DNA of 64,000 nt, from assembly GCA_022822905.1 (NCBI GenBank), contig JAJDYE010000023.1, positions 94,521-158,520 of the forward strand, read 5' to 3'. This document shows positions 5,670-9,527 of the stretch, piece by piece. Numbering within the stretch: position 1 is the stretch's first letter; each line of letters begins with the position of its first letter. Both the position numbers and the translations under genes were made by a program. This DNA comes from Acidimicrobiia bacterium. Its GTDB lineage: Bacteria > Actinomycetota > Acidimicrobiia > Acidimicrobiales > Bin134. A model generated the notes under the pieces. The model was given only the letters and a program-made list of their open reading frames with translations, searched no databases and was not told the origin of the DNA.

Positions 5670-5754
5670 GCCCCCCACAGTAGGCGAGCGCCGTGACAAA
5701 TCCCCTGACGAAATGGGTCAGCCGAAACTATGGGTCTACCAGTAGTGTGCTCGA

Positions 5755-5955
5755 ATGATCGTGGAACTGGACCTCAGCCCTGACTGCGAAGCGGCATTGT
5801 GGGCCGCCGTCCAGCAAGCAGGCCGCACCGTAGATGAGACGGTTCACCTGGCCATCGAAGCTTTCGTCGAACAGCAAGACTTAGACCAGTGGCGTGCAGA
5901 GGCCAAAAGGAACATGGCCATCCACGCTGAGACTCTGCGCCGCCTAGGAGAGTGA
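5755..5955 (+). CDS. small ribbon-helix-helix-like protein, probable antitoxin or regulator
   Basis: A 66-residue protein beginning MIVELDLSPDCEAALWAAV, with the pattern of a short beta-strand followed by two helices (AGRTVDETVHLAIEAFV) and a charged C-terminal helix. This fits ribbon-helix-helix proteins of the CopG/antitoxin type, though the match is by overall pattern only. Its stop overlaps the GTG start of the next 40-codon frame, indicating translational coupling. No toxin gene follows in this copy of the locus. It is divergent from the D-aminoacylase gene. Confidence 0.5.
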   Translation: MIVELDLSPDCEAALWAAVQQAGRTVDETVHLAIEAFVEQQDLDQWRAEAKRNMAIHAETLRRLGE

Positions 5956-6074
5956 TCGACGAGGACTATTTCCTCCGCGACTTGGAGCCGATGGGCGACC
6001 CGAGTCAGTTCGCTATCGAAGACTTAACCCTCGAGGAAGAGGACGCGTTCTTCGCCATCATCGAAGACCTCTGA
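5952..6074 (+). CDS. 40-residue acidic peptide, second copy of the antitoxin-like peptide at 6629
   Basis: The frame GTG 5952 to TGA 6072-6074 overlaps the preceding gene by 4 bases. The product contains LEPMGDPSQF and ends EEEDAFFAIIEDL. The peptide encoded at 6629-6793 contains LEPMGDPSKF and the same ending; 43 bases (6032-6074 and 6751-6793) are identical. The second copy lies directly in front of a PIN toxin, so this is either a duplicated antitoxin that has lost its toxin or the second subunit of a two-gene antitoxin. The strongly acidic C-terminus could mimic RNA to bind a toxin; that is inference. Confidence 0.5.
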   Translation: MIDEDYFLRDLEPMGDPSQFAIEDLTLEEEDAFFAIIEDL

Positions 6075-6085
6075 TTGGCGACCTC

Positions 6086-6149
6086 CCCAGCGCGAAGCAG
6101 CCCCGACCGAAGTCGGGGCCGTCGGGCCGGGGCTACTCACCCCGGCGGG
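6086..6149. repeat. 64-bp interspersed repeat, copy A (hairpin-forming)
   Basis: 60 of 64 bases match copy B at 8318-8381, in the same orientation. The core GCCCCGAC-CGAA-GTCGGGGC is a perfect 8-bp stem with a CGAA tetraloop, followed by GTCGGGCCGGGGC, which can pair alternatively with the first arm. The copies flank a 2.2-kb block holding the IS-like iterations, the putative small RNA, the peptide/PIN pair and the broken helicase. It could be a REP-like element or a terminator; no T-tract follows. Confidence 0.6.
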
Positions 6150-6178
6150 ATTGCCCTCATCCTAACGCAGCAGCGCTG

Positions 6179-6247
6179 GGACAAAACATGCATCAGGCGA
6201 TGGACAAAAATGGCATTAGCACCTGGACAAAAAGTGCATTAGCCCCG
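6179..6247. repeat. three tandem 23-bp iterations (IS-end-like)
   Basis: Three units with an exact 23-bp period start at 6179, 6202 and 6225. Each begins GGACAAAA and carries GCAT at the same offset; units 2 and 3 agree at 19 of 23 positions. Multiple short terminal repeats of this form are typical of one end of IS21-family elements, where they bind the transposase. No transposase gene is present, so this would be a solitary or remnant end. The assignment is inference from repeat architecture. Confidence 0.45.
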
Positions 6248-6351
6248 GTAGACGCCGGAGGCCACCCCGCCACCGCTGGCTTCACCCTGGCCCAGCAGCG
6301 CCATCCACAGCATGCCCATGTGGTCGCGCAACCCTTCGACCCCAAAAACCG

Positions 6352-6381
6352 TTGACGCCCCCACAGTGGCATCGCTAGAGT
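6352..6381 (+). promoter_or_regulatory. sigma70-type promoter upstream of a putative small RNA
   Basis: TTGACG (6352-6357) and TAGAGT (6376-6381) are separated by 18 bases, close to the vegetative consensus. A transcript would begin near 6387-6389 and meet a strong intrinsic terminator at 6444-6474. Confidence 0.45.
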
Positions 6382-6387
6382 TGCCAG

Positions 6388-6475
6388 TGCCTGCGGTCCG
6401 GTTAGTAGGAATCTTCCGAATGCAGCCGACATACCGCGGCGACGGGGCCCCGGACCGCACGGGGCCCCTTTTTTG
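6388..6475 (+). ncRNA. putative structured small RNA or leader attenuator
   Basis: The stretch 6075-6628 has no protein gene. Inside it lies a self-contained promoter-to-terminator unit of about 88 nt. TGCGGTCCGG (6392-6401) is perfectly complementary to CCGGACCGCA (6450-6459), giving a 10-bp closing helix around a roughly 48-nt core. The 3' arm of that helix is the loop, plus two stem bases, of the terminator hairpin at 6444-6468, so the two structures compete or form a pseudoknot. This is the layout of an attenuator or a compact sRNA. No known RNA family was recognised. The acidic-peptide/PIN pair starts 154 bases downstream. Confidence 0.4.
6444..6474 (+). terminator. strong Rho-independent terminator
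   Basis: GGGGCCCC (6444-6451) pairs with GGGGCCCC (6461-6468) across a 9-nt loop, followed immediately by six T residues (6469-6474). This is the clearest intrinsic terminator in the window, yet no open reading frame ends just before it, which supports a non-coding transcript. Confidence 0.75.
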
Positions 6476-6628
6476 TGCCATGAGCTACCCGCCCCGTGAT
6501 CCAAAGGGCCTACGGTTCGCACCCCCATGACTTGCTGGCAAGGCTCCAAAAGCCTCCAAAGCAAATGGGGTAGCGAAGCAGGCGGCCTGGCCGGGTAGTC
6601 TGAAGGCCGACCGACTGCGGAGGTGGCG

Positions 6629-6793
6629 ATGTCTGACAGAACAGCAAACCAGATGCCAGACGCGCCTGGCCCGGCCACGATCGCAGAGATCATCCGCGGT
6701 TTGGAACCGATGGGCGATCCAAGCAAGTTCTCCATTGAGGACTTGACCGCCGAGGAAGAGGACGCGTTCTTCGCCATCATCGAAGACCTCTGA
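6629..6793 (+). CDS. 54-residue acidic peptide, putative antitoxin of the adjacent PIN toxin
   Basis: The ATG at 6629 is preceded by AGGTGG. The product runs to TGA at 6791-6793, four bases before the PIN gene starts. It contains TIAEIIRGLEPMGDPSKF and ends EEEDAFFAIIEDL, with many acidic residues in the last 20. Its C-terminal half matches the 40-residue peptide at 5952. No DNA-binding domain is evident in so short a chain, so it would differ from standard VapB antitoxins. Function as antitoxin is inferred from order, spacing and size. Confidence 0.55.
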   Translation: MSDRTANQMPDAPGPATIAEIIRGLEPMGDPSKFSIEDLTAEEEDAFFAIIEDL

Positions 6794-6797
6794 CTGC

Positions 6798-7220
6798 ATG
6801 CCCCAGCAAGTAGTGGTTGACACCATGGTCGCCAGTGCCTGGCTCGCCAACCGCCAGGTAGAGCGCCAGGTTCGTTGGTTGAGGGTTCTGGCGCAAGCCC
6901 TATGGATACTCCCCTTCGTGGTCGTTGCCGAGATGCGCTTCGGGGCCGAGGTGGCCGGTTGGGGCCCTCGACGCCGAGCGAGGCTGGAGAACGTGATAGC
7001 GCGTGCCGCAGTAGTGCCTCCGCTTGAAGACATCACTGATGCGTATGTCGATCTACGAGCCTGGAGCGTTCGCAACGGACACGGTCTGAGCGCCAAGAGC
7101 CACGAAGCCGACCGGTGGGTCGCCGCTGTCGCCATTGCCGGAGAACTCCCGCTCGCCACTGAGGACTCGATCTTCGACGACGTTCCTATGCTACGGCTCC
7201 TCGATCCAGATGGGGCCTAG
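6798..7220 (+). CDS. PIN-domain ribonuclease, VapC-like toxin
   Basis: A 140-residue PIN protein: VVVDTMVASAWL (D8), VVVAEMRFG (E45), SHEADRWVAAVAI and PLATEDSIFDDV supply the four acidic clusters expected for a metal-dependent ribonuclease. The length is normal for VapC. It lies 4 bases after the acidic peptide gene and is probably co-translated with it. Its last 30 bases (7191-7220) overlap, on the opposite strand, the broken end of the helicase pseudogene, suggesting the module landed in or displaced part of that gene. Confidence 0.8.
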   Translation: MPQQVVVDTMVASAWLANRQVERQVRWLRVLAQALWILPFVVVAEMRFGAEVAGWGPRRRARLENVIARAAVVPPLEDITDAYVDLRAWSVRNGHGLSAKSHEADRWVAAVAIAGELPLATEDSIFDDVPMLRLLDPDGA

Positions 7221-8154
7221 AAGTGTTTCAGAGATGATGTCATCGGGCTGGACCTCGGCACCGAACAGCTTTGTAGCCACCTCTGCGACTCGGGCATTGC
7301 GCTCTGCAGGCGTGCCCTCGGTTGAGAGTGTGGCCGACGTGGCCCACGCACTGCATGGCGGAGGCACCGGTGGCCTCTCGGATGCGGCGAACCAACATGG
7401 CCACATCCGCTCCCTGACGACCTCGGTGGGTGTGTAACTCGTCAAGCACCAGGAAACGCAGTGAAGACATCGCCCTTACCAAGGCTTTGTCGATGTAGCG
7501 GGTGAGAATGAGCTTGGCCATCACATAGTTGGTGAGCAAGATATCGGGCGGATTGGTGAGGATCGCCTCTCGCTCGTGCTGGTTCTGCTGGCCGGTGTAC
7601 ACAGCAAACGTGACAGGCCGATCTACGGTTGAACCAGGCGTTGTCGCCCAAGAACCGTGGTCGAGGAACTTGGACAGTTCCTCATATTGGCTGTTGGCCA
7701 GAGCGTTCATCGGATACATGACCAGGGCCTTGACGCCCTGGCCCGACCCTGAGCGCAGCACATGATCGACGATGGGAATGATGCAGGCGAGACTCTTACC
7801 GGACCCCGTGCCGGTGGTCAGCACATAGTTCCGCCCCGCTGCGGCGGCATCGACCGCCTCACTCTGATGCCGGTGCAATGTGAGCAAGTGGCCTTGGGAG
7901 TTGTCGGCCGATTTGCCCGTTTGGAAGATGTCTCCCGCTGTCTGGTGAAGTTGCCCTGAATTGACCAGCTCTTCGATCGACGCCCCCGGCTCAAACGCAG
8001 GGTTCACCCCAACCCGGGGATGCGGCCACAGCAGCCCACCGTCCAGCGCCTCGGCTACACCCTCTCGAATGCGCCCGTCGGCAATCTCCACAAAGCTCTC
8101 GGCGTACCGCCGGTACTCCCCAACCACCCGCTCCCGAAGCTCAAAGACGTCCAC
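7191..8154 (-). pseudogene. truncated and frameshifted DEAD/DEAH-box helicase (N-terminal remnant)
   Basis: The first frame (8154 to 7240) encodes the N-terminus of a large superfamily 2 helicase: TGTGSGKS (114-121), YPMNALANSQ, LTNYVMAKLIL and DELH (238-241). After MQCVG the expected TSATLSTEG is found only in the next frame, which runs to a stop at 7191. One extra base in the GGCCC run near 7341-7345 explains the shift. After SATLS only about 40 residues remain, so the whole second RecA domain and C-terminus are missing. The family resembles large helicases of about 1000 or more residues seen with DUF1998-like tails, some in phage-defence loci; the exact subfamily is uncertain. Nonfunctional as a helicase. 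Confidence 0.8.
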
Positions 8155-8317
8155 AATCAGTCTCCGTCACGAAGGGACTGGCTGCCCCGAGCCTCGGAGT
8201 GTGTCTGCCTCAGCACCGCCCCATCCTCGCATCGGGGTGTAACCCTATGGGCAATACAAGCTGCTGTCAGGACTCGTAGGTCTCGATGACAACCTCGCAT
8301 ATGCGGCTGGCAATCTG

Positions 8318-8381
8318 CCCAGCGCGAAACAGCCCCGACCGAAGCCGGGGCCGTCGGGCCGGGGCTGCTCACCCCCGCGGG
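8318..8381. repeat. 64-bp interspersed repeat, copy B
   Basis: Direct repeat of 6086-6149, with mismatches at 8329, 8345, 8367 and 8376. In this copy the main stem carries one A-C mismatch. It lies in the 276-base gap 8155-8430 between the start of the helicase remnant and the end of the next leftward gene; nothing else is recognised in that gap. Confidence 0.6.
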
Positions 8382-8430
8382 GCGATTTTCACCCTAATCG
8401 GTGAGTATCTAGAGCCAGGGAGGACCCCGC

Positions 8431-8865
8431 CTAGCCGCTAGAGACAAGCAGGTTTCCGAGGTCGCCGTCGGGGGCGATGGCGACCTCGTACTCTGGGAGC
8501 TCCGCTATGCAATGCAACCGCTTGCCCGGAAAGCTCCTCAGATAGTCGAACAGCATCCCGATTTCCGCTTCTGGATGGATCGGCGCTTCTTCGCCGGCGC
8601 GGTCTTCGGCACGCTCATATGGGCCACAACGTCGTACTGCCATCACCTCGATGCTGTTCTCACCTGCCACCCGGATCAAATGGCCTCCACCTGGGTACTC
8701 TCGGTCCAGGTAGTCGAACGTGGCGCCAACCGGGTCTTCGTCAATCACGATGACCGCGGCATCCGGCAACCAGTCGCGAACACCCTCGTTGGTTGCACGC
8801 AGTCGCATCAGCACGCCAAGCGCTTCAAGCCGACGAGCCGATGCCTCCCTTTCTCCTTTAGCCAC
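8431..8865 (-). CDS. hypothetical protein, unknown function
   Basis: A 144-residue soluble protein with mixed alpha/beta character; not recognised. It starts MAKGEREASARRLEALGVLM and has no transmembrane segment or signal peptide. It is rich in acidic residues in the C-terminal half (APDGDLGN, GEEAPIHPEAEIGM). It follows the 8956-9393 gene on the same strand after 90 bases, and the two probably form an operon. The codon usage and GC content look native. It may be part of the same accessory block as the TA genes, but no partner function is visible. Confidence 0.5.
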   Translation of the reverse strand: MAKGEREASARRLEALGVLMRLRATNEGVRDWLPDAAVIVIDEDPVGATFDYLDREYPGGGHLIRVAGENSIEVMAVRRCGPYERAEDRAGEEAPIHPEAEIGMLFDYLRSFPGKRLHCIAELPEYEVAIAPDGDLGNLLVSSG

Positions 8866-8955
8866 AGCTACACGCTACCGGCAACGACAAGCGTTGCCAT
8901 TCCCCTGGCCCGCGATACCCAGTGCCGCAAACCGGCTTGGCAGCAAGCGGCTGCT

Positions 8956-9393
8956 CTACCGACCAGAGGTCCATCTTCTCCGGTTCTCTTCCCAGATGTC
9001 ACGAAGCAGCTTTTCGACCCGCCCATAGATTTCCTCCATCTCCTCTCGAGTCGAATAGTGCCCAATATCCCTCCGTGAGAGTTCAGCACCGCTTCTGCGG
9101 TACTTGTGGATATGCACCGACCCATGCTTTGCATCAATGATTGCAACATCTCTCCACTCTCCTGTCTCGTGATCAAACGCCTGCTGAGCAAGCATGAAAT
9201 CGCTCAACGCGCCATTCTGCTCATCGCGCCACTCCCGGACCACCACGCGGTCGTCCTGGAGATTTAGTCCGTATGCGTACTCGAGACGGGGGGCACCCTC
9301 GCGATACGGCTTGAAGGTGCTGTTCCTGCCAGGAATGGAATGGTCTGCTGGTCGAGGGCTGCCGATTCCCTTACCCTTCCCTGGCTCCACCAT
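8956..9393 (-). CDS. hypothetical protein, unknown function
   Basis: A 145-residue hydrophilic protein, not recognised. The first 30 residues are low-complexity (Gly/Pro/Ser), followed by an ordered part with YAYGLNLQDDRVVVREW, then FDHETGEWRDVAIIDAKHG, and a helical basic C-terminus (VEKLLRDIWEENRRRW). The D..T..W.DV pattern suggests a small beta-rich fold. It is the first gene of a two-gene leftward unit with 8431-8865. The 134 bases upstream (9394-9527) are strikingly AT-rich and may contain its promoter. Confidence 0.5.
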   Translation of the reverse strand: MVEPGKGKGIGSPRPADHSIPGRNSTFKPYREGAPRLEYAYGLNLQDDRVVVREWRDEQNGALSDFMLAQQAFDHETGEWRDVAIIDAKHGSVHIHKYRRSGAELSRRDIGHYSTREEMEEIYGRVEKLLRDIWEENRRRWTSGR

Positions 9394-9527
9394 CCCTGGG
9401 ACACTATCAACACGATATAGATGGTTGATTATTAGAATTGATTTATATTGTCTAAAATATCACAGATAACTGGTCCACCTATGTTTTTGGTGAGCCATCT
9501 GGGGCACTGGAATGTTTGCTAATGCCT

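What the first reader, a model, noticed from the sequence alone, without database searches (positions are those of the whole stretch)
6352..6475. Promoter-helix-terminator unit: candidate undescribed small RNA or attenuator
Seen: TTGACG-18-TAGAGT, then a 10-bp perfect complementarity between 6392-6401 and 6450-6459, and a strong intrinsic terminator (6444-6474) whose loop is the 3' arm of that helix. The mutually exclusive pairing is what an attenuator or riboswitch-like leader looks like. No protein frame ends before the terminator. It lies just upstream of the acidic-peptide/PIN pair, so it could be an RNA component or regulator of that module. Family assignment is not possible by eye.
Basis: partly seen in the sequence, partly recalled or inferred. 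Interest (0 to 1): 0.6.

Follow-up and report, generated by a model that had tools for sequence, protein, structure and literature searches.

The report
Orphan DUF3800-associated small RNA gene
This is a real, stand-alone gene for a structured RNA of about 87 letters that in related bacteria sits right behind a gene for a putative nuclease (DUF3800); here the nuclease gene is gone but the RNA gene survives, which hints that the RNA once worked with, and may have restrained, that protein.

Summary
The promoter, the 10-bp complementarity and the terminator are all there. The attenuator reading fails: the 10-bp helix is complete in only 2 of 29 homologues, does not covary, and folds 12.5 kcal/mol worse than the alternative. 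No downstream gene is conserved; PIN lies within 1 kb in 1 of 40 loci.

What is conserved is a stand-alone small-RNA gene (promoter 6352-6381, RNA about 6388-6474): a long stem carrying an AGUA/GAA bulged-G-like motif, plus a terminator with a near-fixed loop. I found 40 copies in 31 genomes of the class (Acidimicrobiia, inferred). The stem covaries (0 of 2000 arm swaps as good); a -10 box sits at a fixed distance in 35 of 39 copies.

In 11 of 40 copies a (near) full-length DUF3800 gene, an RNase H-fold family, ends 1-118 nt upstream on the same strand. All 11 such genes found carry the RNA. In 29 copies, the window's included, DUF3800 is lost or a remnant. No Rfam 15 family matches.

Best reading: the RNA half of an undescribed DUF3800-RNA module, surviving here alone. 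An antitoxin-like role is likeliest but untested.

The parts
6352..6381 (+). sigma-70-type promoter TTGACG-18-TAGAGT of the RNA gene
   Evidence: equivalent -10 at fixed distance in 35 of 39 homologues; -35/-10 pair scoring at least 8 of 12 in 18 of 39 against 1.2% of shuffles
6388..6474 (+). small RNA (about 87 nt; start inferred from the -10 box, end from the T run)
   Evidence: R1 match 6385-6475, 106.9 bits (the window copy is in the model's training set); homologues
6389..6397 (+). P1 5' arm (GCC-U-GC-GGU), pairs with 6433-6440
   Evidence: fold; P1 arm-swap test 0 of 2000
6399..6403 (+). P2 5' arm CGGUU, pairs with 6424-6428
   Evidence: 100% of cells paired in 23 distinct sequences, 2 pairs with changes on both sides
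6404..6407 (+). AGUA half of an AGUA/GAA internal loop (bulged-G / loop-E-like; motif name recalled)
   Evidence: present in every copy I could register except the decayed L097 (AGTA was the anchor of the regex)
6408..6417 (+). P3 hairpin GGA-AUCU-UCC with variable tetraloop
   Evidence: 3-bp stem, 95.7% of cells paired
6418..6423 (+). GAA half of the internal loop followed by bulge UGC
   Evidence: 29 of 30 copies have GAA (one CAA); UGC mostly, also UGU, UGG, UGA, CGC, CAC, UU
6424..6428 (+). P2 3' arm AGCCG
6433..6440 (+). P1 3' arm ACC-GC-GGC
6444..6474 (+). intrinsic terminator; loop GACCGCA (6453-6459) nearly fixed across the family (consensus GGAMCKCAC including closing bases)

Best explanation
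A stand-alone gene for an about 87-nt structured RNA: promoter 6352-6381, RNA 6388-6474, stem P1-P2-P3 with an AGUA/GAA internal loop, and a terminator hairpin with a conserved loop. It is the RNA half of a two-gene module whose other half is a DUF3800 protein (RNase H-like fold) encoded just upstream in related genomes. In the window's genome the cognate DUF3800 gene has been lost and the RNA gene kept. Shown: transcription signals, structure, homologues, linkage, asymmetric loss. Inferred: the RNA binds the DUF3800 protein and holds its nuclease activity in check (an antitoxin-like RNA), so the protein cannot persist without the RNA while the RNA can persist alone, as a harmless leftover or as immunity against incoming DUF3800 copies. 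Confidence is about 0.85 that it is a stand-alone RNA of a DUF3800-linked class and about 0.35 for the restraining role; the figure given covers the statement as a whole.
For: R1 finds 30 copies in 22 of 397 genomes of the order. R2 finds 9 further strong copies in 8 genomes among 395 of the class. With G009 that makes 40 copies in 31 genomes. (Near) full-length DUF3800 of this subfamily: 9 copies in order genomes (the other two matches there are fragments) plus G412 and G654. All 11 have the RNA 1-118 nt downstream, same strand. At genome level in the order, 8 of 9 genomes with a subfamily match also have the RNA, about 0.5 expected by chance (22 x 9 / 397); the ninth, G208, holds only an N-terminal fragment with two stops. 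Of the 40 copies, 29 lack a full gene; 5 keep a remnant (L083, L098, L103, L109, L131). Four of four proteins tested score over the Pfam DUF3800 cut-off. Covariation: P1 swaps 0 of 2000; 8 of 23 pairs with double changes, covariation score 0.213 against 0.163 in shuffles, 0 of 500 as high. In the window's genus the block from about -41 to +91/+117 stays alignable while the sequence right beside it does not.
Against: No transcript, binding or toxicity data. DUF3800 is a larger mutational target than the RNA, so it would be lost more often even without toxicity. In the window's own genome there is no cognate protein, so the present function of this copy is unknown. Its only other DUF3800 above the Pfam cut-off is of another subfamily and has no R1 match beside it. 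No complementarity between the RNA and the DUF3800 start region beyond swaps (1276 of 2000 as good), so an antisense mode is not supported. Restraint versus activation of the protein cannot be told apart by sequence. Relatedness among copies inflates the shuffle tests.
Confidence: 0.55

Rival explanations
1. The RNA is the working cofactor (scaffold or guide) of a DUF3800 nuclease, as in TnpB with its RNA encoded just behind the gene; RNA-only copies are decaying remains or act with proteins encoded elsewhere.
For: RNA lies directly 3' of an RNase H-fold gene in 11 of 11 cases. The Science 2023 paper reports an RNase H fold predicted for DUF3800, its known association with putative ncRNAs, and Cas12a2-linked TPR-DUF3800 proteins (PMC10910872, passages). 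TnpB with a downstream RAGATH-18-derived RNA is the working precedent (PMC11061315, abstract).
Against: The RNA ends in an intrinsic terminator with no variable stretch behind it that could serve as guide. Full RNA genes with promoter persist in genomes without the protein (18 of the 31 loci show no trace of it). No element ends or target duplications were found in the comparisons, though none was searched for systematically.
Confidence: 0.27
2. An independent trans-acting regulatory sRNA or protein-binding RNA of these bacteria; the DUF3800 gene is a frequent neighbour in accessory islands but not its partner.
For: 29 of 40 copies have no full DUF3800 gene; promoter and structure stay intact in orphans; the terminator loop is nearly fixed.
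Against: Does not explain why all 11 (near) full-length DUF3800 genes of the subfamily found have the RNA in the same place and orientation. The RNA is absent from most genomes (22 of 397 in the order; 7 of 22 in the window's genus), so it is no core regulator.
Confidence: 0.14
3. An attenuator or riboswitch-like leader of the acidic-peptide/PIN pair that switches between the 10-bp helix and the terminator.
For: The 10-bp complementarity is real in the window and in G011; the PIN pair lies 240-830 nt downstream in the window.
Against: Helix broken in 27 of 29 homologues, no covariation, 12.5 kcal/mol less stable, downstream gene not conserved.
Confidence: 0.02
4. A short-stem T-box-like RNA that reads a tRNA through the AGUA/GAA loop and the UGC bulge (a cysteine codon).
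For: AGUA, GAA and a following triplet resemble a T-box specifier loop (recalled); UGC in most copies, UGU in others.
Against: The triplet is also UGG, UGA, CGC, CAC or only UU. No Rfam T-box match, no UGGN antiterminator by eye, no downstream amino-acid gene.
Confidence: 0.02

Closest known systems
Rfam DUF3800-associated RNA motifs (DUF3800-VI RF02915; also DUF3800-I RF02969 and DUF3800-IX RF02968)
   Same: A small structured RNA next to a DUF3800 gene.
   Different: No Rfam family matches the RNA in the window or in any relative searched. In the one known case looked at here, DUF3800-VI lies 55 nt 5' of the gene as a 52-nt leader (L164); ours lies 3' with its own promoter and terminator and often without the gene. 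The original description (Weinberg and co-workers 2017, recalled) is not held, so its unlisted motifs could not be compared.
Type III toxin-antitoxin systems (ToxIN, CptIN, TenpIN)
   Same: A two-gene unit of a (putative) nuclease and a non-coding RNA with an intrinsic terminator.
   Different: Per PMC5086642 (section 2 read): repeated RNA upstream of the toxin gene, one promoter, terminator between. Here a single unrepeated RNA downstream with its own promoter, an unrelated protein family, and no neutralisation data.
IS607 TnpB with RAGATH-18-derived RNA
   Same: RNA right behind the gene of an RNA-guided nuclease (PMC11061315, abstract); RNase H-like fold of TnpB is recalled.
   Different: Our RNA ends in an intrinsic terminator, shows no guide stretch, and is not tied to a recognised transposon here.

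Membership tests
Rfam DUF3800 RNA motifs | score above a family's covariance-model cut-off | tested here: not met
   Searches (gathering; E-value mode): no DUF3800 family; positive control finds DUF3800-VI in L164 at 44.7 bits (cut-off 35).
Rfam DUF3800 RNA motifs | encoded beside a DUF3800 gene | tested here: inconclusive
   Met for 11 of 40 copies of this class; not met for the window copy.
Rfam DUF3800 RNA motifs | 5' leader position (as seen for DUF3800-VI) | tested here: not met
   All 11 linked copies are 3' of the gene.
Attenuator / riboswitch-like leader | conserved, mutually exclusive alternative helix | tested here: not met
Attenuator / riboswitch-like leader | conserved downstream gene under its control | tested here: not met
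   (PIN within 1 kb in 1 of 40); flank comparison
Type III toxin-antitoxin | RNA and protein genes tightly linked | tested here: met
   11 of 11 (near) full-length DUF3800 genes
Type III toxin-antitoxin | tandem-repeat RNA upstream of toxin, one promoter, terminator between | tested here: not met
   single RNA downstream with own promoter; definition from PMC5086642
Type III toxin-antitoxin | RNA neutralises a toxic endoribonuclease | not testable with these tools
   needs expression assays
TnpB-type RNA-guided nuclease | guide sequence at the RNA 3' end beyond the element | tested here: not met
   homology and RNA end together at the terminator
T-box | T-box family match and specifier codon matching a downstream amino-acid gene | tested here: not met
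   no Rfam match; triplet varies

The most novel reading that the evidence does not exclude
A new kind of RNA-protein conflict module: an RNase H-fold DUF3800 nuclease kept in check by a small structured RNA encoded behind it, with the RNA repeatedly retained on its own as immunity after the nuclease is lost, the window copy being such a survivor.
Probability: 0.3. Interest if true: 0.8.

Novelty: new variant of a known kind. Interest (0 to 1): 0.6.

Why it matters
DUF3800 is a domain of unknown function with several RNA motifs near its genes and no established mechanism that my searches found. Here is a class where the RNA is independently transcribed, lies behind the gene, was present beside every near-complete gene of the subfamily found, and outlives the gene. 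That makes the RNA-protein partnership directly testable with a small protein (about 240 aa) and an about 87-nt RNA, and it says which experiment to do first: express the protein with and without the RNA.

Tried and rejected
Rejected: the 10-bp helix as a switch; a link to PIN; antisense pairing with the DUF3800 start region; a small protein inside the RNA; known Rfam RNAs; phage or plasmid origin (viral contigs; plasmids 53; phages 54, all empty); known defence genes (PADLOC, nothing below E 0.04); solved structure of the protein by sequence (none). A phylum-wide search for the DUF3800 subfamily found 0 of 296, but that sample also held no positive genome, so it shows little. Neighbour families of the loci without a full gene (82 ORFs from 22 of the 40 loci) showed no recurrent partner beyond the amidohydrolase flanks of the window's genus (7 of 82), DUF4143/AAA_14 (3) and Fic (3).

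Rows dropped: L102 (broken P2 arm) and L097 (no AGUA motif) from the pairing tests, leaving 29 of 31; 23 of the 31 copies were chosen for alignment A6 (near-duplicates and decayed copies left out); four weak class matches (G578, G660, G466, G442; 26.6-31.9 bits) are not counted among the 40; the no-AGUA copy is missing from the 39. In one search the AGTA anchor was a regex, so its presence there is by construction.

Full report
WHAT IS THERE. The 89 nt 6386-6474 fold with z -3.4 into a local stem plus the terminator. The 10-bp helix would cost 12.5 kcal/mol.

HOMOLOGUES. A nucleotide search of 99 relatives found full-length homologues in 8 other genomes, six of the same genus and two of other families (the many further matches at E above 0.001 there are short GC-rich pieces). 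A covariance model (R1) built from the nine copies then found 30 copies in 22 of 397 genomes of the order at E up to 0.01. A model from 23 copies (R2) found strong copies in 14 and weak ones in 4 of 395 genomes of the class. I count 40 strong copies in 31 genomes: 30, G009, and G412, G524, G542, G548, G581, G587, G604 and two of G654. No organism is named for the window; the class is inferred from titles of near relatives (Acidimicrobiia, Acidimicrobiales). Several genomes hold two copies and G355 four.

ANATOMY. All structured copies share an outer stem P1, P2 (CGGYU/ARCCG), an internal loop AGUA/GAA, a three-pair P3 with a variable tetra- to hexaloop, a bulge that is mostly UGC, and a terminator hairpin with loop GGAMCKCAC. 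The AGUA/GAA pair looks like the bulged-G or loop-E module (motif recalled, not tested). P1 arms pair better with their own partner than with swapped ones (0 of 2000 permutations as good; 22 of 28 better than the mean of their swaps). On alignment A6 (23 of 31 copies), 8 of 23 pairs have double changes and the covariation score is 0.213 against 0.163 in shuffles (0 of 500 as high); relatedness inflates this, and the slid controls score 0.05-0.10.

A GENE OF ITS OWN. A TANNNT box ends 19-24 nt before the YUAGUA motif in 35 of 39 copies, against 26 of 2318 control windows. A -35/-10 pair scoring at least 8 of 12 is found in 18 of 39 against 1.2% of shuffles. So the transcript begins at the foot of P1 (start inferred) and ends at the terminator.

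PARTNER. Upstream of 11 copies, same strand, ends a gene for a DUF3800 protein of about 240 aa; the stop lies 1-118 nt before the RNA (one of the 11, G117, has one in-frame stop). Four of four such proteins tested score above the Pfam cut-off (21.2-35 bits against 21). Eight of them share invariant D13, D14, E64, D146 and D190 (numbers of the first sequence), which fits an RNase H-like active site (inference; the fold is reported in PMC10910872, passages). Searching the order with this subfamily gave 9 of 397 genomes, 8 of which have the RNA; searching the class gave 6 of 395, 5 of which have it (four of the six were already). The exception in both is G208, a fragment with two stops. Five further RNA copies keep only a piece of DUF3800: L083, L098, L103, L109 and L131. 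The other 24, the window's included, show none in the flank held; flanks were about 6 kb or to the contig end for the copies, about 1.5 kb for the class copies. The window's genome has one DUF3800 gene above the Pfam cut-off elsewhere, of another subfamily and without an R1 match beside it; a second match there is below the cut-off (16.6 bits).

RETENTION AFTER LOSS. In the window's genus 7 of 22 genomes hold the RNA and one (G018) the gene. G013 keeps an in-frame stump of it, and G008 matches G018 from -40 to +478 without the gene: two separate losses with the RNA kept. Around the orphans only the block from about -41 to +91/+117 aligns with the window, while the sequence right beside it does not. 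Block identity (78-92%) is similar to that of flanking protein genes (80-93%), not higher, so constraint is likely but not extreme.

MECHANISM. Shown: a separate RNA gene, a conserved structure, linkage and asymmetry (protein not found without RNA, RNA often without protein). Inferred: the two form a complex and the RNA restrains the protein. The asymmetry is what a toxin with an RNA antitoxin would leave, but the larger size of the protein gene as a mutational target could give the same picture. The cofactor reading is the main rival.

WHAT IS KNOWN. Rfam release 15 has no match for this RNA; the same search finds DUF3800-VI 55 nt upstream of a DUF3800 gene on an Agrobacterium plasmid (L164). 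Paper searches with DUF3800 listed no functional study; passages of PMC11701678, PMC7657543 and PMC10910872 were read, and PMC11109978 does not mention the domain. The 2017 paper that described DUF3800 motifs (recalled) is not held, so I cannot exclude that a motif of it missing from Rfam equals this one.

Noticed in passing
window 6623-7220: Acidic 56-aa ORF followed by a PIN-domain gene (Pfam PF01850). In 8 of 10 PIN relatives from public contigs an acidic-peptide homologue lies just upstream; the peptide has no Pfam match. Looks like an undescribed VapBC-type pair.
   Followed up: partly
window 5755-6074: A 66-aa ORF directly followed by a 40-aa copy of the acidic peptide without a PIN gene; the 66-aa ORF recurs near the RNA in 5 other genomes of the genus.
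   Followed up: no
window 5700-9527: The RNA lies in an accessory island between two tandem amidohydrolase genes. In RNA-lacking relatives such as G003, G015 and G019 matches to the two genes are under 100 bp apart.
   Followed up: partly
window 6076-6149 and 8308-8381: A 74-nt repeat, 91% identical, with inverted-repeat parts.
   Followed up: no
window 6178-6241: Three short repeats of the form GGACAAAA..GCATYAG upstream of the RNA; a similar unit abuts the promoter in G021.
   Followed up: no
window 7240-8154 (- strand): A DEAD-box helicase piece of 304 aa that looks truncated.
   Followed up: no
L103, L104, L107: Between G293 and G355 two chromosomal arrangements differ with the junctions near RNA copies (L103 shares the left side, L104 the right side of L107), as if RNA copies had served for recombination.
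   Followed up: partly
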